Translations under genes and position numbers: made by a program
Assembly: GCA_023252195.1 (NCBI GenBank)
Contig: JAHEXI010000011.1
Span: forward strand, 1-64,000
Length of the DNA stretch: 64,000 bases
DNA from: Pseudonocardiales bacterium
Lineage (GTDB): Bacteria; Actinomycetota; Actinomycetes; Mycobacteriales; Pseudonocardiaceae
Direction: 5' to 3'
In this document: positions 13,382 to 54,326 of the stretch, piece after piece
Layout: each line of letters opens with the position of its first letter
Numbering within the stretch: position 1 is the first letter of the stretch
The notes under the pieces: model-generated
Databases searched by the model: none
What the model was told of the DNA's origin: nothing
What the model saw: only the letters and a program-made list of their open reading frames with translations

Positions 13382-13621
13382 GTGAGGATACACAGAACCA
13401 CCAGATCGGGCACAAGCCCCCACCCGATCCCCAGGACAACCCCAACAGACAGCAGCGTCCGATCTGACCACCGACGGGCACCCGTGCCCGCAGTCCTTGC
13501 CTACTGCGGCCTCCAGGCCACCCTCGCGGTCTGCGCGCTGATCTGGCATCCCGATGCCACCAGAACCATCCCACTCGCCGCGCTACGGCACGCCGTCAGC
13601 GAAGGGGAGGTGAACACCTGA
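13382..13621 (+). CDS. Small protein coupled to rep
   Basis: This 79-aa frame starts at GTG 13382. Its second half (VPAVLAYCGLQATLAVCALIW, then HPDATRTIPLAALRHAVSE) contains one probable transmembrane segment. Its stop overlaps the rep start (TGATG), so translation is coupled. pSAM2-like elements often have small, poorly conserved ORFs here, some of them spread proteins with membrane segments, but I see no specific match. The first 35 residues are basic and look unstructured. Confidence 0.5.
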   Translation: MRIHRTTRSGTSPHPIPRTTPTDSSVRSDHRRAPVPAVLAYCGLQATLAVCALIWHPDATRTIPLAALRHAVSEGEVNT

Positions 13622-15270
13622 TGGCCACCCACGACCCCGAACCCCTCGACGCCGGGCGGATGACCCGAGCACAACGGGCCGCACTACCGCTCAGCACCGA
13701 GGTGGCCCAGGCCCTGGCCGAACAGCACGGCGTCTGCATCCGGCCACTGGCCATGCGCCGCATCGACACCACCACCGGCCGCACCGACATCGTGCCCGTC
13801 GCCTGCGGCTCTACCCGAGAAGACCAATGCCGACCCTGCGCGGACAAAGCCCGGCGGCTGCGGATGACCCAGTGCCGCCAGGGTTGGCACCTCGACACCG
13901 AACCGGTCACCGACCGGCCCAAGCCCACTGAGGACCACAAGGCGCTGATGGCCACCCGAGCCGATCTCTGCGCCGTCTACACCGAATGCAAAGCCATCGG
14001 CGACGAGATCACCTGTGAGCAGATCGCCGACTCGGTCGCCGAACTCGACACCGACCTCCGCGCCGCCGGGGTACGCGGTCGGCTCACCCCCCTCGATCCC
14101 CCACCCAAGCCGGTCAAGCGCTCCACCCGGCGCCGTCAAGACGCCCCGGACCTGCCTCGCCGCCCCATCGAGCGGCGCACGGTAGGGCGGGTGTTCGCCG
14201 GATGTTATCGGCCCTCGACCTTTCTCACGCTCACCCTCGATTCCTACGGCCGCGTCGACAACGAAGGGGCAGCGGTGGATCCGGACCGGTATGACTACCG
14301 GCGAGCGGCGCGGGACGCGGTTCACTTCCCGGCCTTGGTGGATCGGTTCTGGCAAAACACGCGGCGCTGTGTGGGGTGGGAGGTGCAGTACTTCGGCACC
14401 GTCGAACCCCAAAAACGGGGCGCGCCGCATTTCCACGCCGCCATCCGCGGGACCATCCCCCGCGCCGATCTGAAAGCGATCACCGCGGCGACCTACCACC
14501 AAGTGTGGTGGCCCGCGCACGATCAGCTCGTCTACACCGGCGAGCGGCTGCCGACCTGGGACACCAGAGCCAAGACCTTCACCGCCCCCGACACCGGCAC
14601 ACCGCTGCCCACCTGGGAACAGGCCTGCCAGGACCTGACCGAGCCCGCGCACGTGGCGCGGTTCGGGGAGCAGGTGCACGTCAAGGGCATCCTGGGCGGC
14701 AGTGAGGAAGCCGGCCGCCACGTCGGCTACCTCACCAAATACCTCACCAAAACCATCGGCCAGGCCGCTGGGCTCGGCGAACACGCCACCGACGCCCAAC
14801 GCGACCATGCCCGCCGGTTGCACGCCGAACTCTCGGTCACACCCTGCTCACCCCGGTGCCCGATCTGGCTGCTCTACGGCATCCAACCCCAAGGCGCCCG
14901 ACACTCCATGACACCCGGCCACTGCAAGGGCAAAAACCACCAGCCCCAGCACCTCGGCATCGCCGGACGACGCGTCCTGGTCTCCCGCAAATGGTCCAAC
15001 AAAACCCTCGACGACCACCGCGCCGAACGCGGTGAATTCGTTCGGCAACTTCTCCATGCAGCGGGCACCCACCCCGCCCACGGCCCTCAAGACGGCCCGT
15101 ACCAGTGGGAACGACCCGCACCCACCGACCCCGACATCCCACCCCGACCCGTCCTCCTCCTCCAGGCCGTCGCCGAACGACAGCGATGGAAAGCCGAATA
15201 CACCGCCGCACAACTCACCACCAGCGACCCACCACCCGACAACCGTTCAGCAACCGAGGAGGCCGCGTGA
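13621..15270 (+). CDS. Replication initiator, RepSA family
   Basis: The 549-aa product has an N-terminal Cys cluster (CGSTREDQCRPCADKARRLRM, about residues 61-80) like a zinc finger. The HUH motif PHFHAAI is near residue 269 and follows the strand GWEVQYFGTVEPQKRGAP. A candidate nicking tyrosine lies in VGYLTKYLTK (about 367-376). The C-terminal domain includes CKGKNHQPQHLGIAGRRVLVSRKWSNKT. These are features of rolling-circle initiators of pSAM2-type actinobacterial integrative elements, which nick and rejoin the excised circle at the origin. The length is normal for the family and the gene appears intact. It overlaps xis by ATGA. Confidence 0.93.
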   Translation: MATHDPEPLDAGRMTRAQRAALPLSTEVAQALAEQHGVCIRPLAMRRIDTTTGRTDIVPVACGSTREDQCRPCADKARRLRMTQCRQGWHLDTEPVTDRPKPTEDHKALMATRADLCAVYTECKAIGDEITCEQIADSVAELDTDLRAAGVRGRLTPLDPPPKPVKRSTRRRQDAPDLPRRPIERRTVGRVFAGCYRPSTFLTLTLDSYGRVDNEGAAVDPDRYDYRRAARDAVHFPALVDRFWQNTRRCVGWEVQYFGTVEPQKRGAPHFHAAIRGTIPRADLKAITAATYHQVWWPAHDQLVYTGERLPTWDTRAKTFTAPDTGTPLPTWEQACQDLTEPAHVARFGEQVHVKGILGGSEEAGRHVGYLTKYLTKTIGQAAGLGEHATDAQRDHARRLHAELSVTPCSPRCPIWLLYGIQPQGARHSMTPGHCKGKNHQPQHLGIAGRRVLVSRKWSNKTLDDHRAERGEFVRQLLHAAGTHPAHGPQDGPYQWERPAPTDPDIPPRPVLLLQAVAERQRWKAEYTAAQLTTSDPPPDNRSATEEAA

Positions 15271-23839: not shown

Positions 23840-24826
23840 TTACCGGGCCACTGGTTCACCGTGTCGGCTGAGAAACGCCCACATCACGGTGGCAGCGGCC
23901 GGTGATCCGCCGCTGATCCCTGCAGCTGGCCACGCATGACCATGCCCTGGATAGACGACCGACTCGACCTCTGTTGCGCCGGCGCAGCCCCTCCATTGCT
24001 GCACCACCGTCGAGCCGTCCCGTCCGGTCCGCGGGTTGGCGAGGCAGCCATCCTGGGCACGCAGCCAGGCGAGGGCCTGCGGCACCGACGGCAGCGGCGG
24101 ATTCCCGCCCGGCTTTCCACCGAAGGGCAACACCCGATCCGCCGAACCGGCGGCGAGCAGGAACGGCACCGCGGCGGTGCCTGGGTTGCACGGTGACAAC
24201 GGCACCGCACCGTAGGTGGCTACCGCTGCGAAGAGTGTGGGGTGCGCGCACACCTCGCTATAGGCGAGCTTGCCGCCGTTGCTGTACCCGACCAGGTACA
24301 CCCGGCGCGCGTCTACCGGCCACCGCCGCGCCGCGTCGGCCACGATCGCGGCCACGAAGCGCACGTCCGGGACACCGCGAGAGCCGGCGACCCCGCAGCA
24401 GCCGTGACCGGCGTTCCACGAGTGCTGCTCCCCATCGGGAGCCACCAGAATCGCCCGCCGCTGCTCGACCAGACCGAGAAACCCGGTCTGGCTCGCCACC
24501 ACGGAACCGGACTCGCCGCGACCGTGCAGCACGACAAGCAGCGGTAACCGGCTGGTCACGTGCAGCGGCGCGATCGAGCGGTACGTTCGCCGGACGCCGT
24601 CGACGCTCACCGCCTGCGCTTGGCTGACCAGCTCGAAACGGTCCGCCGCCGTTGGGTTGGACGGCATGGACGCTGCCTGCGGCCGTTGCAGCAACATCGG
24701 ATGCGCGACGGCTGTGACCAGGACCGCCAGTATCGCCACAATCGCCGCCGCCAGCGGCGTCCTGACTACGTGCCGACGACCGGACCCCGAGGCTGTGGAA
24801 CCAGCCCTGCTGCCCTTGTGCCGCAT
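23840..24826 (-). CDS. Secreted polyhydroxybutyrate-depolymerase-like esterase (LpqC type)
   Basis: The 328-aa product has an N-terminal membrane anchor or signal (TPLAAAIVAILAVLVTAVAHP, about residues 23-43). An esterase domain follows with LPLLVVLHGRGESG, the nucleophile elbow GYSNGGKLAY (about 200), DRVLPFGG, and the catalytic histidine in YPGHGHAWP. It belongs to the PHB depolymerase / feruloyl esterase-like alpha/beta hydrolases, of which mycobacterial LpqC is one. No lipobox Cys is obvious. It is transcribed away from the ligase operon at 24889, with only 62 bp between the starts, so the two may share a control region. Confidence 0.82.
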   Translation of the reverse strand: MRHKGSRAGSTASGSGRRHVVRTPLAAAIVAILAVLVTAVAHPMLLQRPQAASMPSNPTAADRFELVSQAQAVSVDGVRRTYRSIAPLHVTSRLPLLVVLHGRGESGSVVASQTGFLGLVEQRRAILVAPDGEQHSWNAGHGCCGVAGSRGVPDVRFVAAIVADAARRWPVDARRVYLVGYSNGGKLAYSEVCAHPTLFAAVATYGAVPLSPCNPGTAAVPFLLAAGSADRVLPFGGKPGGNPPLPSVPQALAWLRAQDGCLANPRTGRDGSTVVQQWRGCAGATEVESVVYPGHGHAWPAAGISGGSPAAATVMWAFLSRHGEPVAR

Positions 24827-24888: not shown

Positions 24889-26388
24889 ATGACCACCCTT
24901 CGCGAGCTTGTCACCGAGCGCGCCGAGACCTCCCCACACCGGTGTTTTCTGTCCGACGCGCGCAGCGAACGGTCGTTCGACTTCGCCATGCTTCGCGCGG
25001 CTGCGGATGCCTGGCGTCGTGAACTCGACGCCGCCGGGGTACCGCCGGGTGCCCGGGTCCTCATCGACGTCGACGATCCGCTGGCATTCTGCGCGGTGCA
25101 CCTCGCGGTGATCGCCGCCGGGCGATGCTCAGTACCCGTAGACCCAGCGGCTCCTGCCGCGCAGGCGCACCGCAGCCGGCGCGCCCTACGACCGTGGCTC
25201 GTCGTCAGCGACCGGGCGGCCATCCGAGACATGCGGGTGAACCCGATGACCGGACTGCCCGCCGATCCAGCAGCTCCTATCCGGGCCGTCGGCGCGTGGG
25301 CAGCGCAGCCGCGGACCGGCGCGGTGGCGCTGCTCACGTCCGGCTCGACCGGCACGCCGAAGACGGTCGTGCTCACCGAGCGCCAGTTGCTGCATGTGGC
25401 GCGGTGCGTCGTCGACCACCACGAGCTGTCCGCGACGGACCGTGGCTTCAACCCGCTGCCGTTGTTCCACATCAACGCCCAAGTCGTCGCGCTGCTCGCC
25501 ACGTTCGTCGCGGGTGGCTCGCTGGTGCTGGACCGGCGGTTCCATCGCACGGGGTTCTGGCAACTCCTGGTGCAACGCAGGATCACCTGGGTCAACGCGG
25601 TGCCGGCCATCCTGTCGATCCTGGCGCTGGACAACGTGCCCGAAGTACCTCCCAGCTTGCGGTTCATCCGGTCGGCTTCGGCGCCGCTGCCGGCGGCGGC
25701 CCGCGACCGGGTGGCCGCGCGCAGCGGTGTTGCCGTGGTGGAGAGCTATGGCATGACCGAGGCGGCCAGCCAGATCACCGCCACCCCGCTGTGCGGTGGC
25801 CACCCGCCGGGTTCAGTCGGCCGGCCCGCCGGGGTGGAGCTGGAGATCGTCGGACCGAACGGGCAGCGGTGCGCGGTGGGTGTGGAGGGCCGGCTCCGCA
25901 TCCGCGGCGAGGGTGTGATCAGCGCATACGCCGAGGGCGTGGCCGCCGAGCGCATCGACGCCACAGGTTGGCTGGACACCGGTGATCTCGGGCGACTCGA
26001 CGCTGACGGGTACCTCTACCTCGCCGGGCGTGGCGATGACGTGGTGAACTGCGGCGGCGAACTGGTCCACCCCAGTGAGGTCGAGGAGGTTCTGCTCGGT
26101 GAGCCGGCGGTGGCCGAGGCCGCCGTCGCCCCTTGTCCGCATGAGGTGCTCGGAGCGGTGCCGGTGGCCTGGATTCGACCGGTCCTGGCGCTGGACGATG
26201 CGCAAGCGGCCAAGCTCGTGAGTCGGCTGCGGTTGCGGTGCGAGCGGCAACTCAGCCGGGCGAAACGCCCGGTGGAGTTCCGGATCGTCGCTGCCCTGCC
26301 GCTGACCGCCACCGGGAAGGTGGCCCGCCGCCGGCTGCGGGAGTTGCTCGTCGACGACGCCAGCCGGTCCGAGGCGGTCTCGCTGTGA
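24889..26388 (+). CDS. Acyl-adenylate ligase (AMP-dependent synthetase)
   Basis: This 499-aa ANL-family enzyme has the P-loop LLTSGSTGTPKTVVL (about 149-163), the substrate-side NPLPLFHINAQVV, VESYGMTEAASQ (about 285), GWLDTGDLGRLDADGYLYL and the catalytic C-terminal lysine in LPLTATGKVARR (about 475). Such enzymes activate an acid as acyl-AMP and transfer it to CoA or a carrier protein. No carrier gene is nearby. It opens a translationally coupled operon with an acyltransferase, ComA and a VOC protein; the acyltransferase start overlaps its stop (GTGA). The exact acid cannot be read from sequence. Confidence 0.88.
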   Translation: MTTLRELVTERAETSPHRCFLSDARSERSFDFAMLRAAADAWRRELDAAGVPPGARVLIDVDDPLAFCAVHLAVIAAGRCSVPVDPAAPAAQAHRSRRALRPWLVVSDRAAIRDMRVNPMTGLPADPAAPIRAVGAWAAQPRTGAVALLTSGSTGTPKTVVLTERQLLHVARCVVDHHELSATDRGFNPLPLFHINAQVVALLATFVAGGSLVLDRRFHRTGFWQLLVQRRITWVNAVPAILSILALDNVPEVPPSLRFIRSASAPLPAAARDRVAARSGVAVVESYGMTEAASQITATPLCGGHPPGSVGRPAGVELEIVGPNGQRCAVGVEGRLRIRGEGVISAYAEGVAAERIDATGWLDTGDLGRLDADGYLYLAGRGDDVVNCGGELVHPSEVEEVLLGEPAVAEAAVAPCPHEVLGAVPVAWIRPVLALDDAQAAKLVSRLRLRCERQLSRAKRPVEFRIVAALPLTATGKVARRRLRELLVDDASRSEAVSL

Positions 26389-27581
26389 CGCGCAGCGGCC
26401 GTTCGGGTCACGTCTATGCGGTGGACCTGCTCCGGGTGCTGACCTTCGCCGCCGTCATCGCGGTGCACACCGTGACGACCGTCAACCCGCCCGATAGCGT
26501 CCCGGCGGGCGGCGCCGCGATGCTGCTGCACTTCACCCGTGAAGCGTTCTTCGCCCTCACCGCGTTCGTGCTCGTACACCGATACCGCGACCAGCTTCCC
26601 ACCGTGCCGTTCTGGCGGCGGAGATTTTTGCTGGTCGGTGCGCCGTACGTGATCTGGTCCGTGATCTACAGCGGGCTGGCGCTGATCACGACGCCGCTGC
26701 CGGCCACCGCGGCACTGTCCCAACTCGGACGCAACCTGCTGACCGGCACGGCCTGGTACCACCTGTACTTCCTGGTCGTGACTATGCAGTTCTATCTGCT
26801 GTTCCCCTTGTTCCTGCGGTCGCTGCGAGGATTCGCGCGACGGCGCGGTGGGCTTTGGTGGCTGCTCGCGATCAGCGCGATCCTGCAAGTCGGTATCGAT
26901 GCCGGTCTACACCTGGTGCACCCGAGCGGGATTGCCGGGAAGCTGTTGGGCTACGACGGGTCCTTCATCGGCAGTTACGAGTTCTACCTGGTGCTCGGCG
27001 GGGTGGCTGCGCTGCACGCCGATCGGGTGCAGGCGTGGGTCCGCGAGCATCCGGCGGTCGTGCTTGGGGCGCTGGTTGTCACCGGTGCCGCGGCCGAGGG
27101 CTGGTATCTGCACTCGGTGCGTGCCGGCAGTTCCCCCGGGACCGCGTCCGACGTGTTCCAGCCGGTGATGGTGCCCTGGTGCCTAGCCGTCATCACGGCG
27201 TTGTTCGCCCTCGGTGTCGCCTGGACGGCGCGGCGGGCAGGCGGCCCGGGGTCGAGGGCCGTCGAGACCGGCTCCGACCGCTCGTTCGGCGTGTTCCTCG
27301 TGCATCCGATGGTGCTGTGGACGTTGACGCTCGGCCCGTTGGCGTGGCTGTCCACGCAGGTGTCCGCGCTGTCCTGCACCGTCATCGCTGTCGCGGTGAC
27401 CGTTGTGGTGTCGCTGCTAGTGATCGAGGTGCTGCGGCACAGCCCGCTGAGCCTGGTGCTCACCGGGAAGCATCGCTCGCTGCCCGGTTCAGCCTTTCCT
27501 TCCACTAGACCGAAGCATTCCGCTAGATCCGATTCTTCCGCCTCGACCCAGCCGATCGGGCTGGGCGCAGGGCGGATGTGA
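26385..27581 (+). CDS. Membrane acyltransferase (acyltransferase-3 family)
   Basis: From GTG 26385 the product is about 398 aa with roughly ten membrane segments. It opens with the family start VYAVDLLRVLTFAAVIAVH, in which the His is the likely catalytic residue. FTREAFFALTAFVLVHRYR, WRRRFLLVGAPYVIW and TAWYHLYFLVVTMQFYLLFP are all typical of acyltransferase-3. These enzymes move acyl groups onto sugars, lipids or other hydroxylated molecules at the membrane. It is coupled to the ligase before it and to ComA after it, so it may acylate a sulfolactate-derived product. The C-terminal 40 residues are polar and unconserved. Confidence 0.88.
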   Translation: MTRSGRSGHVYAVDLLRVLTFAAVIAVHTVTTVNPPDSVPAGGAAMLLHFTREAFFALTAFVLVHRYRDQLPTVPFWRRRFLLVGAPYVIWSVIYSGLALITTPLPATAALSQLGRNLLTGTAWYHLYFLVVTMQFYLLFPLFLRSLRGFARRRGGLWWLLAISAILQVGIDAGLHLVHPSGIAGKLLGYDGSFIGSYEFYLVLGGVAALHADRVQAWVREHPAVVLGALVVTGAAAEGWYLHSVRAGSSPGTASDVFQPVMVPWCLAVITALFALGVAWTARRAGGPGSRAVETGSDRSFGVFLVHPMVLWTLTLGPLAWLSTQVSALSCTVIAVAVTVVVSLLVIEVLRHSPLSLVLTGKHRSLPGSAFPSTRPKHSARSDSSASTQPIGLGAGRM

Positions 27582-27592
27582 GGGAGGTCGTC

Positions 27593-28357
27593 GTGATCGA
27601 CACGCAACTGCGCTTACCGGAGCTCGAGGTCAAACCACGACGGCGTGGGCTCACGATGGTCATCGATCCGGGACTGTTCACCGGCCAATTCGAAGACGCC
27701 ATAGACAGCGTCGGCGAATTCGTGGATTTCGTGAAATTCGGCTGGGGTACCTGCCTGGTCACCAAAGACATCAAACGCAAGATCGACATCTTGCGCAGCG
27801 CCGATATCGATTTCTACTTCGGCGGTACACTGTTCGAGCGCTACGCTCTGGACGGACTCGTGTCGGAGTGGGTGGCGCTGTGCCGTCAGCTGGGTGCTAC
27901 GCACGTCGAGATATCTAACGGCACGATCCCTATCGACAACACTGAGAAAGCACGCTGGGTGGCCCGATTCGCCGACGAGTTCGTCGTCATCAGCGAGGTC
28001 GGTTTCAAGGACATCAGGCGTTCCGATGCGCTGGCATCGGGACGCTGGCTCGCCTTCATTGAGGAGGACTTCGCCGCCGGGGCTTACCTGGTCACTGCTG
28101 AGGCCCGGGAGAGCGGCCGCAGCGGAATCTGCCGGTCCGACGGCCAACCGCGGCACGAGCTGGTCAACGAAATCGTCGGCTCCGGTATCGACCTCGACCG
28201 GCTGCTGTTCGAAGCCCCGAGCAAGGAACTGCAGACCTACTTCCTGCGCCGGATGGGTCCCTCGGTCAACTTGGGCAACGTGCGCGCCGACGACGTGATC
28301 GCACTCGAGACACTACGGCGGGGTCTGCGCTCAGACACCCTACCGGGAGTCTTGTAA
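27593..28357 (+). CDS. comA: Phosphosulfolactate synthase (ComA family)
   Basis: ComA adds sulfite to phosphoenolpyruvate, giving 3-phosphosulfolactate, the first step to coenzyme M in methanogens; Bacillus has a homologue for spore sulfolactate. The 254-aa product is a TIM barrel with all the family boxes: RRGLTMVIDPG, VDFVKFGWGT (about 40-49), FGGTLFE, HVEISNGT, SEVGFKD, EARESGRSGI, LFEAPSKE, SVNLGNV and ALETLRRGLRSDT. The active site looks intact. GTG 27593 with GGGAGG is preferred; GTG 27578 would overlap the acyltransferase stop. No ComB phosphatase or ComC dehydrogenase is nearby, so the product may not be free sulfolactate. The VOC gene follows with an ATG overlap. Confidence 0.92.
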   Translation: MIDTQLRLPELEVKPRRRGLTMVIDPGLFTGQFEDAIDSVGEFVDFVKFGWGTCLVTKDIKRKIDILRSADIDFYFGGTLFERYALDGLVSEWVALCRQLGATHVEISNGTIPIDNTEKARWVARFADEFVVISEVGFKDIRRSDALASGRWLAFIEEDFAAGAYLVTAEARESGRSGICRSDGQPRHELVNEIVGSGIDLDRLLFEAPSKELQTYFLRRMGPSVNLGNVRADDVIALETLRRGLRSDTLPGVL

Positions 28358-28770
28358 TGGATACCGCGGTGAGAGGTACGCCACGCAACGTCTTCCACTT
28401 GGCGATACCCACTCTTGACCTGGAAGCGGCCCGAGGATTCTACGTCGACGGCCTCGGCTGCACGCTGTCCCGGCGCTACGCAGACCGCATCACCCTGAAC
28501 TTCTTCGGCGACCAAGTCGTCTGCCACCTCTCCGACCGCGTCGACACTGCTCCTGAGCTTTATCCGAGACATTTCGGAATGACATTCCGGGATAAGCAGG
28601 ACTGGGATCGGCTGCTCCGCGTGGCCAGAGCCCGCGATCTGCCGTTCTTCGCCGACCCCTTCCGCCGTTTCGACGGCGGACCCGAAGGACACGATTCGTT
28701 CGTGCTGCGAGATCCCTCGAACAACCTGCTGGAGTTCAAGCACTACGACAACCCGACGATGGTCTACTGA
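28357..28770 (+). CDS. VOC-family (glyoxalase/dioxygenase-fold) protein
   Basis: This 137-aa single-chain vicinal-oxygen-chelate protein opens FHLAIPTLDLEAARGFYVDGLGC, continues with LNFFGDQVVCHLS and RHFGMTF, and ends with FVLRDPSNNLLEFKHY. His (FHLAIP), His (RHFGMTF) and Glu (LLEFKHY) are placed for metal binding, so it may be an active metalloenzyme. Its ATG overlaps the comA stop (TAATG). Its task in the putative sulfonate pathway is unknown. The reaction type cannot be chosen from sequence among isomerase, lyase and dioxygenase. Confidence 0.85.
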   Translation: MDTAVRGTPRNVFHLAIPTLDLEAARGFYVDGLGCTLSRRYADRITLNFFGDQVVCHLSDRVDTAPELYPRHFGMTFRDKQDWDRLLRVARARDLPFFADPFRRFDGGPEGHDSFVLRDPSNNLLEFKHYDNPTMVY

Positions 28771-28818
28771 GCTCGTGAGTGGCAAACAGTGTTATAACAC
28801 TGTTTGCCACTCACGAGC
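28771..28818. terminator. 48-bp perfect palindrome between convergent genes
   Basis: The 24-bp arm 28771-28794 is followed directly by its exact complement 28795-28818, with GTTATAAC at the centre. It starts right after the VOC stop and includes the dgt stop codon (28811-28813), so both convergent transcripts would end in the same hairpin. There is no T run. It probably acts as a bidirectional terminator. Confidence 0.8.
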
Positions 28819-48286: not shown

Positions 48287-49969
48287 ATGTCTGCACCTAC
48301 ACGCCCGGCACCAGCGACGAAGGTCCGCCGTGGGGAAGGCCAATGGGCCCTAGGTCATCTCGAGCCGCTCAACCCCAATGAGCGCACCAAGAAAGACGAT
48401 GACGGGCTCAATGTCCGGCGCCGGATCGAGACGATCTACGCACAGCGAGGCTTCGATTCGATCGACCCGGCTGATCTGCGTGGCCGGTTCCGCTGGTGGG
48501 GGCTTTACACCCAGCGCCGGCCCGGCATCGACGGTGGCCGGACCGGCACGCTGGAGCCCGAGGAGCTCGACGACTCCTATTTCATGATGCGGGTGCGCAT
48601 CGACGGCGGCGCGCTGAGCACCGAGCAGCTGCGGGTGGTCGGCGAGATCTCCCGGCTCTACGCCCGCGACACCGCTGACATCACCGACCGGGAGAACATC
48701 CAGTATCACTGGATCCGGATCGAGGATGTGCCCGCGATCTGGGAACAGCTCGAAGCCGTCGGGCTGTCCACCACCGAAGCCTGCGGCGACTGCCCCCGCG
48801 TCGTGCTGGGCTCCCCGGTCGCCGGGATCTCCGCCGACGAGATCATCGACGGTACCCCGGCGATCGACGAGATCACCCGGCGCTATATCGGCAGTCCCGA
48901 GTTCTCCAACCTGCCCCGCAAGTACAAGACCGCGATCTCCGGTCTGCAGGACGTCGCCCATGAAGTCAACGACATCTCCTTCGTCGGGGTGGTGCATCCC
49001 GAGCACGGGCCGGGCTTCGATCTCTGGGTCGGCGGCGGTTTGTCCACCAATCCGAAGATCGCGCTGCGACTGGGCGCCTGGGTGCCCCGTGACGAGGTGC
49101 CCGAGGTCTGGGCCGCGGTGACGACGCTGTTCCGGGACTACGGCTACCGGCGGCTGCGGCACCGCGCCCGGATCAAGTTCCTCATCGCCGACTGGGGCGC
49201 GGAGCGCTTCCGCGAGGTGCTGGAGACGCAGTACCTGCACCGTCGGCTCGTCGACGGCCCCGCCCCGCAACCGCCGCCCGCCCCGGTCGACCACGTCGGC
49301 GTGCACCGCCAGCGCGACGGCAAGTGCTACATCGGTCTCGCTCCGATGGCCGGTCGCGTCTCGGGCACCACGCTGGTCGATGTGGCCAAAGCCGTCGAGC
49401 GGTCCGGGTCCGGCAGGGTCCGGCTGACTCCGTACCAGAAGCTCGTCGTGCTCGACGTCGCCGAGTCTGAAGTGGACGGCCTGGTCACCGAGCTGGACAG
49501 GCTGGGACTGCGGGCCGACGCCAGCCCGTGGCGGCGCTCGGTGATGGCCTGCACCGGCATCGAGTTCTGCAAGCTAGCCATTGTGGAGACCAAGAATCGG
49601 GCAGTCACGCTGGTGACCGAGCTGGAGCAGCGCCTCGCCGATCTCCAGTCCACTCTGGACGTCCCGGTCTCGGTGCACCTCAACGGCTGCCCGAACTCGT
49701 GTGCCCGGATCCAGGTCGCCGATATCGGGCTCAAGGGCCAGCTGGTGACCGACGCCGAGGGCAACCAGGTCGAGGGCTTCCAGGTGCACTTGGGCGGCGG
49801 GCTGGGGCTGGACAGCGGGTTCGGCCGCAAGCTGCGCGGGCACAAGGTGACCTCCGCCGGGCTTGCCGGCTACGTGGAGCGAGTGGTCCGCGGTTACGTG
49901 CAGCAGCGCGAGCCGGGCGAGCGGTTCGCGCAGTGGGTCGCCCGCGCTGACGAGGGCGCACTCCGTTGA
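48287..49969 (+). CDS. sir: Ferredoxin-dependent sulfite reductase
   Basis: The 560-aa product reduces sulfite to sulfide with ferredoxin. It contains two ferredoxin-like half domains, ITDRENIQYHWIRIEDVP, TEACGDCPRVVLGSP and the siroheme/[4Fe-4S] ligands ACTGIEFCKLAIVE (about 423-436) and LNGCPNSCARIQVADIG (about 465-481). Its length matches mycobacterial SirA (Rv2391), which also precedes cysH. Context with cysHCDN and a sirohydrochlorin chelatase favours sulfite over nitrite. Confidence 0.94.
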   Translation: MSAPTRPAPATKVRRGEGQWALGHLEPLNPNERTKKDDDGLNVRRRIETIYAQRGFDSIDPADLRGRFRWWGLYTQRRPGIDGGRTGTLEPEELDDSYFMMRVRIDGGALSTEQLRVVGEISRLYARDTADITDRENIQYHWIRIEDVPAIWEQLEAVGLSTTEACGDCPRVVLGSPVAGISADEIIDGTPAIDEITRRYIGSPEFSNLPRKYKTAISGLQDVAHEVNDISFVGVVHPEHGPGFDLWVGGGLSTNPKIALRLGAWVPRDEVPEVWAAVTTLFRDYGYRRLRHRARIKFLIADWGAERFREVLETQYLHRRLVDGPAPQPPPAPVDHVGVHRQRDGKCYIGLAPMAGRVSGTTLVDVAKAVERSGSGRVRLTPYQKLVVLDVAESEVDGLVTELDRLGLRADASPWRRSVMACTGIEFCKLAIVETKNRAVTLVTELEQRLADLQSTLDVPVSVHLNGCPNSCARIQVADIGLKGQLVTDAEGNQVEGFQVHLGGGLGLDSGFGRKLRGHKVTSAGLAGYVERVVRGYVQQREPGERFAQWVARADEGALR

Positions 49970-49987
49970 TGTTGATAGGAGATTGGG

Positions 49988-50152
49988 ATGACGGAGATCA
50001 GGGCGGTTCCGTTCTACTGCCCGTACTGCGGCGAGGAGGACCTTCGGCCCTCGGAAGAGCCGTCGGGGGGGTGGCGTTGCGCGGACTGCCAGCGGGTGTT
50101 CATCGTCCGGTTGGTGGCACTGGTGACCCCGACCCCGGGGATAGCGCGGTGA
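49988..50152 (+). CDS. Zinc-ribbon micro-protein between sir and cysH
   Basis: This is a 54-aa ORF: ATG 49988 preceded by TAGGAGATTGGG, two knuckles FYCPYCGEE and WRCADCQRVF forming a CxxC...CxxC zinc ribbon, then a tail ending at 50150-50152. Its stop overlaps the cysH GTG start (GTGA), so it is translated with the operon. Small zinc-ribbon proteins of this kind sit in the sulfate-assimilation operon of many actinobacteria and are uncharacterised. Confidence 0.8.
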   Translation: MTEIRAVPFYCPYCGEEDLRPSEEPSGGWRCADCQRVFIVRLVALVTPTPGIAR

Positions 50153-50841
50153 CAGCGACCGTCGACTTGGCGCAGCTCGCGCGGGACGCGAGCCGCGAGC
50201 TGGAGTCCGCCCCCGCCGCGGAGATCCTGCGCTGGGCGGTGCAGACCTTCGGCGCTCGGTTCGCGGTAGCGTCGTCGATGCAGGACGCGGTGCTGGTGCA
50301 CCTGGTGTCGCAGGTCGCGCCGGGCGTCGACGTGCTGTTCCTGGACACCGGCTACCACTTCGCCGAGACGTTGGGCACCCGCGACGCCGTCGCCACGACC
50401 TACGACGTGAACGTGATCAGCCTGACACCCCGGCAGACCGTCGCCGAGCAGGACGCCACCGAGGGACCCAAGCTGCACGACCGCGACCCGGACCGGTGCT
50501 GCCGGATGCGCAAAGTGGAACCACTGGATCGTGCGCTGGCGCACTACGATGCCTGGGCTACCGGGCTGCGCCGGGTCGAGGCGCCGACTAGGCGCAGCAC
50601 GCCGGTGGTGTCCTACGACGCCGACCGGGGCAAGGTGAAGATCGCTCCGATCGCGGCCTGGAGCGACGCTGACGTCGAGAATTACATCGCCGAGCACGGC
50701 CTCCTGGTCAACCCGCTGCTGACTGCTGGGTACCCGTCGATCGGCTGCGTCCCGTGCACCCGAGCGGTGGCGGCCGGGCAGGATCCCCGGGCCGGCCGCT
50801 GGGCCGGCTTGACCAAGACCGAATGCGGGATCCACCAATGA
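50149..50841 (+). CDS. cysH: Adenylyl-sulfate (APS) reductase
   Basis: The 230-aa product has the PP-loop-like fold (FGARFAVASSMQDAVLVHL, VLFLDTGYHFAET). The paired cysteines of the [4Fe-4S] cluster, DRCCRMRKVEP and CVPCTR, mark it as an APS rather than PAPS reductase. The C-terminal TECGIH carries the catalytic Cys. It turns APS and thioredoxin into sulfite and AMP. It overlaps its neighbours on both sides (GTGA, ATGA). Confidence 0.96.
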   Translation: MTATVDLAQLARDASRELESAPAAEILRWAVQTFGARFAVASSMQDAVLVHLVSQVAPGVDVLFLDTGYHFAETLGTRDAVATTYDVNVISLTPRQTVAEQDATEGPKLHDRDPDRCCRMRKVEPLDRALAHYDAWATGLRRVEAPTRRSTPVVSYDADRGKVKIAPIAAWSDADVENYIAEHGLLVNPLLTAGYPSIGCVPCTRAVAAGQDPRAGRWAGLTKTECGIHQ

Positions 50842-51374
50842 ACCGGGGCGCCACCGTCTGGTTGACCGGACTGTCCGGGGCGGGCAAGACCACAGTTGCC
50901 GCCGCCGTCGCCGAGCGGCTGCGCACCGAGGGCCGGGAGGTCGAGGTGCTCGACGGCGACGAGCTGCGCCGCGGCCTGTCCGCCGGGTTGGGCTTCTCCC
51001 GGGACGACCGGGACACCCACGTCCGGCGCGTCGGGTTCGTGGCCGAACTGCTCGCCCGGCACGGTGTCGACGTCCTGGTTCCGGTCATCGCCCCGTACGC
51101 CAGCACCCGCGACGAAGTGCGGGCCCACCACGACGCGCACGGCACTGGCTATCTCGAAGTGCATGTGGCCACCCCGCTGGTCGAATGCATCCGCCGCGAC
51201 GTCAAAGGCCTTTACGCCCGCGCAGCAGCCGGTCAGCTGACCGAGATGACCGGTGTGGACGACCCGTACGAGGAGCCCGACAAACCCGATCTGCGATTAG
51301 ACACCACCGGTACCGACATCGCCGCCGCCGCACAGCGCGTGATGGACCTACTCACCGAGAGGGGCATGACGTGA
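50838..51374 (+). CDS. cysC: Adenylyl-sulfate kinase
   Basis: The 178-aa P-loop kinase has GATVWLTGLSGAGKTTVAAA (P-loop about 11-18), LDGDELRRGLSAGLGFSRDDRDTHVRRV, LVPVIAPYASTRDEVR and VKGLYARAAAGQLTEMTGVDDPYE. It phosphorylates APS to PAPS. In an operon with an APS reductase this makes PAPS for sulfation rather than reduction. The gene is separate from cysN, unlike the fused NC form of mycobacteria. ATG 50838 overlaps cysH; the stop overlaps cysD (GTGA). Confidence 0.95.
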   Translation: MNRGATVWLTGLSGAGKTTVAAAVAERLRTEGREVEVLDGDELRRGLSAGLGFSRDDRDTHVRRVGFVAELLARHGVDVLVPVIAPYASTRDEVRAHHDAHGTGYLEVHVATPLVECIRRDVKGLYARAAAGQLTEMTGVDDPYEEPDKPDLRLDTTGTDIAAAAQRVMDLLTERGMT

Positions 51375-52339
51375 CGGCAATCCTGACACGCATTCAGCGG
51401 GCTCAGCGGGGTTATCCGGGAACCGGTGACCCAGCTGAATGCGGCACGTCCGTGGATCATCTCGCGGCGCTGGAATCTGAGGCGGTGCACATCATTCGGG
51501 AGGCGGTCGCCGAGTTTGATCGGCCGGTGCTGCTGTTCTCTGGGGGCAAGGATTCCGCGGTGCTGCTGCACCTGGCGCTGCGCGCGTTGCAGCCGGCGCC
51601 GCTGCCGTTCCCACTGCTGCACGTCGACACCGGGCACAACTTCCCCGAGGTGATCGCCTTCCGGGACCGCCTGGTCGCCGACCTGGGGCTGCGGCTGCAC
51701 GTGGCGGCGGTGCAGGACTGGATCGACGACGGGCGGTTGACCGAACGCCCTGACGGGACCCGCAACCCGCTGCAGACCGTCCCGCTGCTGGACACCATCA
51801 ACGAGCACCGCTTCGATGCTGTCTTCGGCGGCGCCCGCCGCGATGAGGACCGGGCGCGGGCCAAGGAGCGCATCGTCAGCCTGCGCGACGCCTTCGGCGG
51901 CTGGGATCCGCGCCGGCAACGTCCCGAGCTGTGGAGTCTCTACAACGGCCGGCACACCGCTGGCGAGCACGTCCGGGTCTTCCCGCTGTCCAACTGGACG
52001 GAACTGGACATCTGGCACTACATCGCGCGGCGCGACGTGCCGGTCCCGGACATCTATTACGCCCACCAGCGGGAGGTGTTCGCCCGCGACGGGATGTGGC
52101 TGACCGCCGGTGAGTGGGGCGGCCCTCGCAACGGCGAGCGGATCGTCACCAAGTCGGTGCGGTACCGCACCGTGGGCGACGCTTCCTGCACCGGCGCGGT
52201 GGAGTCCACCGCGGTGACCATCGACGAGGTGCTCACCGAGGTGGCCACCAGCCGGATCACCGAGCGCGGTGCCACCCGGGCCGACGACCGGCTGTCGGAG
52301 GCCGCCATGGAAGACCGCAAACGCGACGGCTACTTCTGA
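51371..52339 (+). CDS. cysD: Sulfate adenylyltransferase subunit 2
   Basis: The 322-aa product has LAALESEAVHIIREAVAEFDRPVLLFSGGKDSAVLLHLALRAL (PP-loop SGGKDS about 57-62), LHVDTGHNFPEVIAFRD, GGARRDEDRARAKERI and the C-terminal DGYF. With CysN it makes APS from sulfate and ATP. Residues about 7-24 are encoded by the palindromic repeat at 51390-51444; CysD proteins normally begin near the LAALESEA segment, so about 20 residues are extra. GTG 51371 overlaps cysC. Confidence 0.96.
   Translation: MTAILTRIQRAQRGYPGTGDPAECGTSVDHLAALESEAVHIIREAVAEFDRPVLLFSGGKDSAVLLHLALRALQPAPLPFPLLHVDTGHNFPEVIAFRDRLVADLGLRLHVAAVQDWIDDGRLTERPDGTRNPLQTVPLLDTINEHRFDAVFGGARRDEDRARAKERIVSLRDAFGGWDPRRQRPELWSLYNGRHTAGEHVRVFPLSNWTELDIWHYIARRDVPVPDIYYAHQREVFARDGMWLTAGEWGGPRNGERIVTKSVRYRTVGDASCTGAVESTAVTIDEVLTEVATSRITERGATRADDRLSEAAMEDRKRDGYF
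51390..51444 (+). repeat. Palindromic repeat, copy B (inside cysD)
   Basis: This segment starts with the same 22 bases as copy A at 37499 and is 45/55 identical without gaps. The arms GCATTCAGC (51390-51398) and GCTGAATGC (51434-51442) still pair. It lies in frame in the 5' part of cysD and accounts for its N-terminal extension. Confidence 0.85.
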
Positions 52340-53607
52340 TGGCCCCACCGATGAGCTTGCTGCGGCTGACCACCGCAGGCTCCGTCGACGACGGGAAATC
52401 CACGCTCGTCGGGCGGTTGCTGCAGGACACCCAATCGATCCTGGTGGACCAGCTGGCGGCGGTGGACCGGGCGACCCGAGCGCGGGGCGGCGTGCAGCTA
52501 GATCTGGCTTTGCTCACCGATGGGCTGCGGGCCGAGCGGGAGCAGGGCATCACCATCGACGTCGCTTACCGCTACTTCGCCACTCCTACCCGCAAGTTCG
52601 TGCTGGCCGACTGCCCCGGGCATGTGCAGTACACCCGTAACACGGTCACCGGGGCGTCGACCGCGGAGCTCGCCGTGGTGCTGGTCGACGCGCGCAACGG
52701 CCTGGTCGAGCAGACCCGCCGCCACCTCGCCGTGATGGCATTCCTGCGCGTACCGCACGTGATGCTGGCGGTGAACAAGATGGACCTGGTGGACTTCGAC
52801 GAGCCGACTTTTCGCGGTATCGAGTCGGAGTTCGCGGCGGTGGCTGGTTCGTTGGGCGTGCCGGATGTGGTGACCGTGCCGGTGTCGGCGCTGCACGGAG
52901 ACAACATCGCGACCCGCAGCGCGCGCACGCCGTGGTATCGGGGCCCGACGCTGCTGGAGCATCTGGAGGCGGTGCCCGCCGGGCGGGAGGCGGTGGCCGA
53001 GCCGATGCGCTTCCCGGTGCAGCTGGTGCTGCGACCCCGCACCACCGAGCATCCCGATTACCGGGGGTTGGCCGGCCAGATCGCCTCCGGAGTCCTCGCA
53101 GTCGGCGATGACGTCATCGCTCTGCCCTCGGGGGGAAGCTCCACCGTCACCGGCATCGACACCCCCGACGGTCCGGTGCTGCGGGCCACCGCCGGGCAGT
53201 CGGTCACCGTGCTGCTGACCGACGAGATCGACGTCGGCCGCGGCGAGGTGCTGGCCCGTCTGGAGCAACAACCGCGGGTGGTGACAGAGCTTGCCGCAGA
53301 CCTGTGCTGGCTGGCCGACCGGCCGTTGCGGCCCGGGGCGCGGGTATTGATCAAACACGGCACTCGCACAGTCAGGGCGATCGTCACCGCGCTGACCGGG
53401 CGGCTGGACCTGCACACCCTGCACCACACTGAACCACCGGCCTCGTTGGAGCTCAACGAGATCGGCGGCGCACTCATCCGTCTCGCTGAGCCGCTAGCGG
53501 TGGACTCCTACGCCACCGACCGGCACACCGGTGGCTTCCTGGTCATCGACATCGCCGACGGCAACACCCTGGCCGCCGGACTGGTTGGGTCCCGGGACGC
53601 CGAGTGA
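52339..53607 (+). CDS. cysN: Sulfate adenylyltransferase subunit 1
   Basis: The 422-aa GTPase has G1 GSVDDGKSTLVG (about 13-25), the EREQGITIDVAYRYF switch, G3 DCPGHVQYTRN, G4 NKMD, and two beta-barrel domains. It drives APS formation by CysD with GTP hydrolysis. It lacks a fused APS kinase, consistent with the separate cysC upstream. ATG 52339 overlaps the cysD stop (TGATG). Confidence 0.96.
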   Translation: MAPPMSLLRLTTAGSVDDGKSTLVGRLLQDTQSILVDQLAAVDRATRARGGVQLDLALLTDGLRAEREQGITIDVAYRYFATPTRKFVLADCPGHVQYTRNTVTGASTAELAVVLVDARNGLVEQTRRHLAVMAFLRVPHVMLAVNKMDLVDFDEPTFRGIESEFAAVAGSLGVPDVVTVPVSALHGDNIATRSARTPWYRGPTLLEHLEAVPAGREAVAEPMRFPVQLVLRPRTTEHPDYRGLAGQIASGVLAVGDDVIALPSGGSSTVTGIDTPDGPVLRATAGQSVTVLLTDEIDVGRGEVLARLEQQPRVVTELAADLCWLADRPLRPGARVLIKHGTRTVRAIVTALTGRLDLHTLHHTEPPASLELNEIGGALIRLAEPLAVDSYATDRHTGGFLVIDIADGNTLAAGLVGSRDAE

Positions 53608-54326
53608 GCCCGGCTTTGGTGGCGGTGGCGCACGGCAGCCGCGACCCGCGGTCGGCCGCCACGATCTCTTCCCTGATGGACCGGGTGCGGCGGCTACGGC
53701 CCGACCTCGACGTCCGGCTCGCCTTCCTGGACCTCTGCACACCCAGCCTGGAGACCGTGCTCACCACGGTGTCCCAGGCGGTGGTGGTCCCCCTGCTGCT
53801 GGGCCGCGCCTTCCACGCTGACGTGGATGTACCCGGTGCGGTGGCGCGCGCCGTGGCAGCTCGACCCCAGTTGGACGTCACGGTGGCCGACGTACTGGGC
53901 CCCGACGCGCGGCTGGAATCCGTTGCGCTACGCCGGCTGGCCGAGGTCGGCGTATCCCCTGCCGACTCGGGCTTCGGCGTCGTGCTCGCCGCTGCCGGTT
54001 CCCAACGAGCTCCGTCCAATGCCGCCGTCGCCGCCGTGGCGCAGCGGCTCGCGCAGCACACCCGTTGGCAGGTGGTCCCCGCCTTCGCCTGCGCAGCCCG
54101 CCCCATCGTCTCCGACGCCATCGCAACGCTGCAGGCGCAAGGCGCCCGCCGCATCGCCGTCGCGTCTTGGTTCCTCGCCCCCGGCCTACTCCCCGACAAA
54201 GTCGTCCGGCAGGCCGGTGACACCGCGTTGCTCGCATCCCCTATAGGCGCCGATGCCGCTGTCGCTGAGCTCATCGTGCACCGCTACGACGGCACCATTC
54301 AGGGACATCTGGCCCGCACAGCCTGA
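53604..54326 (+). CDS. Sirohydrochlorin chelatase (CbiX/SirB type)
   Basis: The 240-aa product has LVAVAHGSRDPRSAATISSLMDRV with the catalytic His, VVVPLLLGRAFHADVDVP, and a second similar half (VVLAAAGSQRAPSNAAV, IAVASWFLAPGLLPDKV), so it is the long, two-half form. In the second half the His is replaced (AAAGSQ), so one half is probably structural. It inserts iron (or cobalt) into sirohydrochlorin; iron gives the siroheme of the sulfite reductase in the same operon. It overlaps cysN (GTGA). Confidence 0.9.
   Translation: MSPALVAVAHGSRDPRSAATISSLMDRVRRLRPDLDVRLAFLDLCTPSLETVLTTVSQAVVVPLLLGRAFHADVDVPGAVARAVAARPQLDVTVADVLGPDARLESVALRRLAEVGVSPADSGFGVVLAAAGSQRAPSNAAVAAVAQRLAQHTRWQVVPAFACAARPIVSDAIATLQAQGARRIAVASWFLAPGLLPDKVVRQAGDTALLASPIGADAAVAELIVHRYDGTIQGHLARTA

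What the first reader, a model, noticed from the sequence alone, without database searches (positions are those of the whole stretch)
24889..28770. Coupled ligase / membrane acyltransferase / phosphosulfolactate synthase / VOC operon: possible new acylated-sulfonate pathway
Four genes overlap or touch end to end (GTGA, a short or GTGA junction, and ATG overlap), so they very likely form one pathway. ComA keeps every family box (VDFVKFGWGT, EARESGRSGI, LETLRRGLR) and so should make 3-phosphosulfolactate from PEP and sulfite. There is no ComB or ComC and no other coenzyme M gene. Instead the set has an acyl-adenylate ligase and a membrane acyltransferase. The simplest reading is a sulfolactate-based acylated metabolite or envelope sulfonolipid, with the VOC protein doing an unknown step. 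Sulfite could come from the complete assimilation operon at 48-54 kb.
Basis: partly seen in the sequence, partly recalled or inferred. Interest (0 to 1): 0.8.

Follow-up and report, generated by a model that had tools for sequence, protein, structure and literature searches.

The report
Conserved actinobacterial sulfonate-ester gene module
Four overlapping genes, with a neighbouring esterase gene, form a gene set scattered across actinobacteria that probably builds a small sulfur-containing acid and attaches it by an ester bond to something in the cell envelope, a use of this sulfonate-making enzyme that we did not find described.

Summary
The four genes are real and overlap as described: AMP-forming ligase (LIG), AT3 membrane acyltransferase, ComA-family phosphosulfolactate synthase, VOC protein. 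The complete linked set occurs in 22 of the 65 ComA-bearing actinobacterial genomes whose neighbourhoods I read (87 were found), plus two named Pseudonocardia genomes, in three gene arrangements. A matching VOC is in 9 of the 10 order-sample genomes with this ComA type and in none of the other 387. The same genome has a second ComA in a separate Xcb-type coenzyme M operon. LIG-AT3-esterase also occurs without ComA and VOC, beside an organic-anion-type transporter: two halves, acid supply and acyl transfer. The acyl-lipid reading is not excluded. No chemistry was tested.

The parts
23840..24826 (-). EST: alpha/beta-hydrolase (PHB-depolymerase-like esterase) with an N-terminal hydrophobic segment, divergent from the ligase gene; proposed remover of the ester
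   Evidence: NF050058 117.5 bits (under its cut-off of 150) and PF10503 29.1 bits (over its 23); hydrophobic segment and GYSNG motif; found in 15 of 24 complete cassette loci, and on the LIG-AT3 strand directly or one gene behind AT3 in L121, L201 and L200
24889..26388 (+). LIG: AMP-forming acyl-CoA ligase, best solved matches oxalyl-CoA synthetases; proposed to activate the sulfolactate-type acid
   Evidence: PF00501/PF13193; PDB 6qjz 1.5e-61, 5ie0 1.6e-54; signature N196/S264/Q295 in 28 of 28 AT3-linked ligases aligned
26385..27581 (+). AT3: multi-pass membrane acyltransferase family, GTG start overlapping the LIG stop; proposed to move the acyl group onto an envelope acceptor
   Evidence: PF01757 6.7e-34; N-terminal His invariant in 23 of 23 sequences
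27578..28357 (+). ComA: phosphosulfolactate synthase family (PEP + sulfite -> 2-phospho-3-sulfolactate, by homology)
   Evidence: PF02679 264 bits; 1u83 3.2e-78; 48 columns shared with the CoM-type ComA set
28357..28770 (+). VOC: metal-type vicinal-oxygen-chelate protein, near-constant partner of this ComA type; step unknown
   Evidence: PF00903; best solved match 3rri 1.3e-49; candidate ligands H14, H57, H72, E126 invariant in the 8-row alignment; co-occurrence; AlphaFold model pLDDT 85.3
28771..28818 (.). 48-base perfect palindrome at the 3' end of the operon, overlapping the end of the convergent dGTPase gene; a genome-wide repeat, perhaps a bidirectional stop
   Evidence: read directly; RNA fold -44.5 kcal/mol, z -10.7; 38 places in the genome with up to 3 mismatches, 0 for the reversed control
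48287..54323 (+). Sulfate assimilation cluster (sulfite reductase, two PAPS_reduct proteins, APS kinase, GTPase subunit, CbiX): plausible sulfite source, not part of the cassette
   Evidence: Pfam matches; the link to the cassette is inference

Best explanation
The cassette is a two-part module. Supply half: ComA joins sulfite to phosphoenolpyruvate to give 2-phospho-3-sulfolactate; a phosphatase (a histidine phosphatase gene follows VOC in some relatives) and/or the VOC enzyme turns it into the final small sulfonated acid. Transfer half: LIG makes the CoA thioester of that acid, AT3 carries the acyl group through the membrane and esterifies an envelope acceptor (glycan, glycolipid or lipid), and the exported esterase can take it off again. 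The product would be a sulfolactyl-type ester giving the surface a permanent negative charge, in the manner of succinylation of mycobacterial envelope polysaccharides. Shown: gene content, overlaps, recurrence, co-occurrence, families, the esterase's hydrophobic N-terminal segment, separability of the halves. Inferred: every substrate and reaction, the direction of acylation and the acceptor.
For: Complete linked set in 22 of 65 ComA-bearing genomes read, plus L008 and L009; order LIG-AT3-COMA-VOC on one strand in 18 of 24 loci, LIG-AT3 divergent from COMA-VOC in 5, COMA-VOC-LIG-AT3 in 1. VOC (169 bits or more) in 9 of 10 genomes with this ComA type and in 0 of the other 387 of the order sample. 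Cassette-type LIG (530 bits or more) in exactly the 10 cassette genomes of 61 relatives. G439 has COMA-VOC-phosphatase and LIG-AT3 on different contigs. G057 has LIG-AT3-transporter-EST with neither ComA nor VOC; the transporter's best families are organic-anion types (galactonate 249 bits, phosphoglycerate 166, both under cut-off), as expected if the acid can be obtained elsewhere. LIG's best solved matches are oxalyl-CoA synthetases by sequence and by Foldseek E-value, and two LIG paralogs without AT3 sit beside FTCD_C/FolD-type C1-folate genes (Pfam run on one of the two, L212): a small-acid family. A hydrophobic N-terminal stretch precedes the esterase domain in 15 of 15, and the esterase lies on the LIG-AT3 strand in L121, L200, L201. 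SucT is a precedent for an acyltransferase that succinylates envelope polysaccharides (title seen in the reference list of PMC10503756).
Against: No substrate was measured. Nearness to oxalyl-CoA synthetases is weak evidence for substrate: the solved matches include the fatty-acyl ligase FadD13 (2.6e-43), and by TM-score 4-coumarate and succinylbenzoate ligases fit the LIG model (mean pLDDT 76.5) as well or better. Pocket residues were placed by alignment and recall, not from a ligand structure. The esterase was not found in 9 of 24 loci. The histidine phosphatase directly follows VOC on the same strand in only 4 of 24 loci and is not beside the window cassette; the best relatives in this genome are 34-36% identical. 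The VOC has no assigned step. G057 and G440 have LIG-AT3 without VOC and without a ComA match, so the transferred acid might not be a sulfonate at all. Two genomes (G856, G945) hold a second ComA of this clade without VOC beside it. In G356 the locus looks decayed and in G171 the VOC match is split between frames, so the system may be dispensable.
Confidence: 0.45

Rival explanations
1. One reading: LIG activates a fatty acid and AT3 puts it on the hydroxyl of sulfolactate, giving an O-acyl-sulfolactate (a single-tailed anionic sulfonolipid); the esterase breaks it down.
For: LIG's best NCBIfam match is the FadD7 fatty acid-CoA ligase family (259 bits, far under the 650 cut-off); ComA would supply the acceptor; the histidine phosphatase of some relatives would free the hydroxyl. 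That AT3 enzymes use acyl-CoA is recalled.
Against: Best solved matches are small-diacid ligases (with the TM-score caveat given above); LIG-AT3-EST exists in a genome without ComA, so AT3 has a use without sulfolactate made in that cell as acceptor; a soluble acceptor does not explain an exported esterase as directly.
Confidence: 0.25
2. This ComA clade has shifted: it adds another nucleophile, or the VOC converts phosphosulfolactate into something no longer recognisable as sulfolactate, and that product is the acyl donor or acceptor.
For: The VOC is a near-constant partner of this ComA type and has no role that I know of in sulfolactate or CoM routes; five columns differ consistently between the cassette and CoM-type ComA sets, among them F86 and L218 (L and Q in the CoM set); fold neighbours of the VOC include FosA and FosB, which act on a small phosphonate (recalled).
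Against: 48 columns are shared with CoM-type ComA, so PEP and sulfite remain the default.
Confidence: 0.15
3. The four genes are neighbours without joint function (free sulfolactate made as a solute; LIG-AT3 unrelated).
For: B. subtilis holds sulfolactate as 5% of the dry weight of mature spores (PMC517825, passage read, which names no ligase or acyltransferase); LIG-AT3 can stand without ComA.
Against: Recurrence with rearranged order and changed flanks, and co-occurrence on separate contigs in G439.
Confidence: 0.05
4. A coenzyme M branch: the cassette makes or modifies CoM or a CoM precursor.
For: Shared first enzyme; three genomes (G000, G002, G009) have both the cassette and a CoM-type operon.
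Against: 19 of the 22 genomes with the complete linked cassette showed no CoM-type ComA operon among their ComA matches; no XcbC, XcbD or XcbE gene at the window cassette; this genome's CoM-type operon has its own ComA.
Confidence: 0.04

Closest known systems
Bacterial coenzyme M operon (Xcb type; Xanthobacter Py2, Nocardioides JS614, Mycolicibacterium chubuense NBB4 plasmids)
   Same: Starts with a ComA-family phosphosulfolactate synthase
   Different: Continues with lyase genes and a PLP enzyme (best families XcbA/D/E/C for the copy in this genome); the cassette has none of these and instead VOC, LIG, AT3 and EST; the cassette ComAs form a clade apart
Bacillus subtilis yitCD sulfolactate synthesis
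   Same: A ComA-type synthase; best solved match of the window ComA is 1u83 (that 1u83 is the B. subtilis protein is recalled)
   Different: Operon expressed late in sporulation and inferred to make phosphosulfolactate; sulfolactate is 5% of spore dry weight (PMC517825, passage); ComB-type phosphatase YitC recalled; no ligase or acyltransferase in the passage read
SucT succinylation of mycobacterial envelope polysaccharides
   Same: An acyltransferase needed for a small dicarboxylic substituent on envelope polysaccharides (title seen in a reference list; AT3 membership recalled)
   Different: No dedicated ligase or sulfonate synthase that I know of; the cassette's acceptor is unknown
Oxalyl-CoA synthetases (AAE3, Pcs60)
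   Same: Best solved matches of LIG by sequence and by Foldseek E-value
   Different: 28% identity to 5ie0 over the model alignment; AAE3 H319 aligns with S294 of LIG (read off the alignment); different gene context
Capnine-type sulfonolipid synthesis (recalled)
   Same: A sulfonate joined to an acyl chain
   Different: Starts from cysteate (recalled, not tested); here ComA and an AT3

Membership tests
Phosphosulfolactate synthase (ComA, PF02679) | Score over the family cut-off | tested here: met
   264 bits against 25.2
Phosphosulfolactate synthase (ComA, PF02679) | Conserved columns shared with CoM-type ComA | tested here: met
   48 columns shared between 23 cassette and 20 CoM-type sequences, at 95% and 90% or more of the rows
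Phosphosulfolactate synthase (ComA, PF02679) | Forms phosphosulfolactate from PEP and sulfite | not testable with these tools
   needs an enzyme assay
Archaeal ComA equivalog TIGR03849 | Score over cut-off | tested here: not met
   227.7 bits against 280
Bacterial CoM pathway (Xcb) | XcbC/D/E-type genes beside ComA | tested here: not met
   absent at the window locus; at the second ComA locus XcbA is over its cut-off and XcbC, XcbD, XcbE are best family but under cut-off
Methanogen-type CoM or Bacillus sulfolactate route | ComB phosphatase (PF04029) | tested here: not met
   21.0 bits against 26.4 in this genome; over cut-off in 6 of the 20 genomes given, 19 of which carry the cassette or parts of it (the neighbourhood of G731 was not read)
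Acyltransferase 3 (PF01757) | Family score and conserved N-terminal His | tested here: met
   117.8 bits against 31; His invariant in 23 of 23; that this His is catalytic is recalled
Oxalyl-CoA synthetase | Oxalate-contacting pocket residues (recalled: H214, S289, H319 of AAE3) | tested here: inconclusive
   H214 and S289 align with H and S, H319 with S294 (read by hand from the alignment); residue roles recalled, no paper found
VOC metalloenzymes | Four strand-borne candidate metal ligands | tested here: met
   H14, H57, H72, E126 invariant in the 8-row alignment and on strands of the model; metal binding itself not tested
Capnine-type sulfonolipid synthesis | Cysteate synthase and cysteate acyltransferase | not tested
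   no search made

The most novel reading that the evidence does not exclude
A third use of phosphosulfolactate synthase, besides coenzyme M and spore sulfolactate: an actinobacterial writer-eraser system that makes a sulfolactate-derived CoA thioester and decorates the cell envelope with sulfonate esters, with the VOC protein as a new enzyme of sulfonate metabolism.
Probability: 0.4. Interest if true: 0.8.

Novelty: new variant of a known kind. Interest (0 to 1): 0.6.

Why it matters
From general knowledge, bacterial ComA genes are mostly read as coenzyme M or plain sulfolactate genes. Here a well-supported ComA clade across Actinomycetota belongs to a separate conserved module with a dedicated ligase, membrane acyltransferase, esterase and a VOC partner whose best solved match, 3rri, carries only a generic name. 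It gives a directly testable prediction, base-labile sulfonate esters in the envelope of Pseudonocardia carriers, and a handle on unassigned VOC and acyltransferase-3 proteins. It would also add a way by which bacteria put a permanent negative charge on their surface.

Tried and rejected
Chance neighbourhood: rejected by recurrence and co-occurrence. Coenzyme M operon at this locus: rejected, no Xcb genes; they lie with the second ComA. ComB elsewhere as the general solution: over cut-off in 6 of the 20 genomes given. Plasmids: 34 plasmid records hold a ComA match, none above 41.0% identity to the window protein; one plasmid VOC match at 44.2%, with no ComA in the 8.4 kb shown.

Literature: searches listed no paper whose title or abstract start points to this gene set. 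Listings were complete for (31 papers; 7; 5; 0) and cut for (15 of 18; 12 of 59; 10 of 17; 15 of 215; 15 of 359). 'Sulfolactyl' and three variants occur in 0 papers of the held library. Subscription papers and preprints are not held.

Rows left out: the ComA tree has 62 rows: 23 of the 24 complete cassette loci (L127 left out), CoM-type loci of 17 of the 22 genomes plus 3 plasmid copies, and 19 others; left out were L036, L057, L063, L064, L068, L125, L127, L128, L133, L134, L136, L142 and L159. The R-X10-H regex count in AT3 was discarded because it also matched upstream translation; the invariant His is used. The correlations used 13 chosen loci.
Full report
Observation. The AT3 start is GTG 26385 and the ComA start GTG 27578, each in a GTGA overlap; VOC begins at ATG 28357, on the last base of the ComA stop. 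The window is contig C38 of a 4.74 Mb genome, 97.8% complete; the nearest named record holding this ComA is a Pseudonocardiales metagenome-assembled genome at 97% protein identity.

Recurrence. I surveyed ComA (PF02679) in 61 relatives (12 positive), 397 genomes of the order (19), 394 of the class (24) and 396 of the phylum (38): 87 distinct ComA-bearing genomes after removing overlaps, so ComA itself is uncommon. I read the neighbourhoods of 65 of these 87; 22 were not fetched. Genes were called with a codon-usage script trained on the window. Complete linked LIG, AT3, ComA and VOC: 22 of 65, plus L008 (Pseudonocardia acidicola) and L009 (Pseudonocardia sp.), so 24 loci. Order: LIG-AT3-COMA-VOC on one strand in 18, LIG-AT3 divergent from COMA-VOC in 5 (L121, L127, L132, L139, L140), COMA-VOC-LIG-AT3 in 1 (L157). 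Partial: G041 (ComA at the end of one contig; VOC-LIG-AT3-EST on another), G439 (COMA-VOC-phosphatase and LIG-AT3 on separate contigs), G127 (contig ends inside ComA; VOC not found in the genome), G356 (ComA in two pieces, LIG not detected with the five queries used). In 22 of the 65, ComA is followed by the DUF7714/XcbA gene of the CoM-type operon, some cut by contig ends; G000, G002 and G009 have both kinds. The remaining ComA loci have other neighbours.

Co-occurrence. With a VOC profile the order sample (397 genomes) is bimodal: 9 genomes at 169-245 bits, the next at 78.6. All 9 are among the 10 genomes with cassette-type ComA (by tree, or for G356 by best match; the tenth is G127); none of the other 387 has it. 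With a LIG profile, 10 of 61 relatives reach 530 bits or more, exactly the 10 cassette genomes; the CoM-only genomes G008 and G055 do not; G057 reaches 480 and other listed matches 337 or less. In a class sample 7 of 256 genomes pass E 1e-115: five with the cassette or its parts (G000, G434, G439, G471, G512), G440 and G577. G440 and G577 are not among the ComA-positive genomes, whose sample their handles come from. Pairwise distances correlate over 13 chosen loci: LIG-AT3 0.89, COMA-LIG 0.71, COMA-AT3 0.70, COMA-VOC 0.60, VOC-LIG 0.53, at most 2 of 5000 permutations as high; shared descent contributes to this.

Two halves. G057 has LIG-AT3-MFS-EST with no ComA and no VOC; the MFS protein scores best on organic-anion families (galactonate 249 bits, phosphoglycerate 166, both under cut-off). 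G440, 80% complete, has LIG-AT3 at a contig end and no VOC. G577 and a second copy in G434 have a LIG paralog without AT3; in G434 it is followed by FTCD_C and FolD, and G577 has genes of like size in the same places, not scanned. All 28 AT3-linked ligases aligned share N196, S264 and Q295 (window numbering), including the two without ComA; the two paralogs keep N196 but lack S264 and Q295. So the transfer half seems to keep one pocket signature whether or not ComA-VOC is present.

ComA. The tree puts the cassette ComAs in a clade of 28 rows (100/99) apart from the CoM-type set (20 rows, weakly supported as one group, 50/85) that holds this genome's second ComA and the Nocardioides, Mycolicibacterium and Xanthobacter copies, the last on a long branch. 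Five rows of the 28 were labelled 'other': L026, L061 and L123 are partial cassettes, while L149 and L156 are second ComA copies without VOC beside them in G856 and G945, a real exception to strict pairing. The second ComA of this genome is followed by XcbA (336 bits, over cut-off) and by XcbD, XcbE and XcbC relatives (under their cut-offs but best family), with an AllG-family gene behind.

Esterase and phosphatase. The divergent hydrolase at 23840-24826 recurs in 15 of 24 loci, with a hydrophobic stretch ahead of the catalytic domain in 15 of 15 (17-residue Kyte-Doolittle maxima 2.1-3.2); these were read from the upstream stop, so start codons are not settled. The motif is GYSNG in 13 of 15, GFSNG in L008 and GYSNR in L032. 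It lies on the LIG-AT3 strand in L121, L200 and L201, and after VOC in L148 and L155. GDSL hydrolases sit beside L054 and L056. A histidine phosphatase directly follows VOC on the same strand in L009, L037, L065 and L066, and in L123; the window has none adjacent, the best relatives in this genome being 34-36% identical elsewhere.

Mechanism. From family knowledge, ComA should give 2-phospho-3-sulfolactate. LIG's best solved matches are oxalyl-CoA synthetases by sequence and by Foldseek E-value, which leans towards a small polar acid; against this, by TM-score 4-coumarate and succinylbenzoate ligases fit the model (mean pLDDT 76.5) as well or better. AT3 plus an exported esterase favours an envelope ester. 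I therefore prefer the sulfonate as acyl group (0.45) over fatty-acyl sulfolactate (0.25). The VOC step is open; its model is closest to 3rri and then to integron-cassette, glyoxalase and fosfomycin-resistance VOC folds.

Novelty. The papers that came up treat ComA in CoM, Bacillus or other contexts; none in the listings points to this set. I read passages only of PMC10562698, PMC517825 and PMC10503756 (reference list only), and search listings otherwise.

Noticed in passing
window 28771-28818: Perfect 48-base palindrome between VOC and the convergent dGTPase gene; a family with 38 places in this genome and none for the reversed control pattern.
   Followed up: partly
L011 7303-18937 (G000:C2): Second ComA of the same genome in an Xcb-type coenzyme M operon, with an AIRS-family protein, OsmC, an AllG-family protein and a CoA-disulfide-reductase-like flavoprotein nearby.
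   Followed up: partly
window 13621-15270: RepSA/pSAM2-type replication initiator, suggesting an integrated actinomycete element in the window.
   Followed up: no
L212 8857-11974 and L211 8828-11916: LIG paralogs without acyltransferase; in L212 followed by FTCD_C and FolD C1-folate genes, possibly a formate- or oxalate-type ligase.
   Followed up: partly
L068 (G356) and L065 (G171): Possibly decaying cassettes: ComA in two pieces and LIG not detected in G356; VOC match split between two frames in G171.
   Followed up: no
L146 7932-11136 and L153 8602-14161: Other ComA branches sit beside an FAD protein and ATP-sulfurylase (L146) or a LytR_C protein, a polysaccharide-synthesis protein and a histidine-phosphatase-like gene (L153): further ComA contexts.
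   Followed up: partly
L149 9052-10014, L156 6073-6930: Second copies of cassette-clade ComA without VOC beside them, in genomes that also have the cassette; L149's is followed by a solute-binding-protein gene.
   Followed up: no
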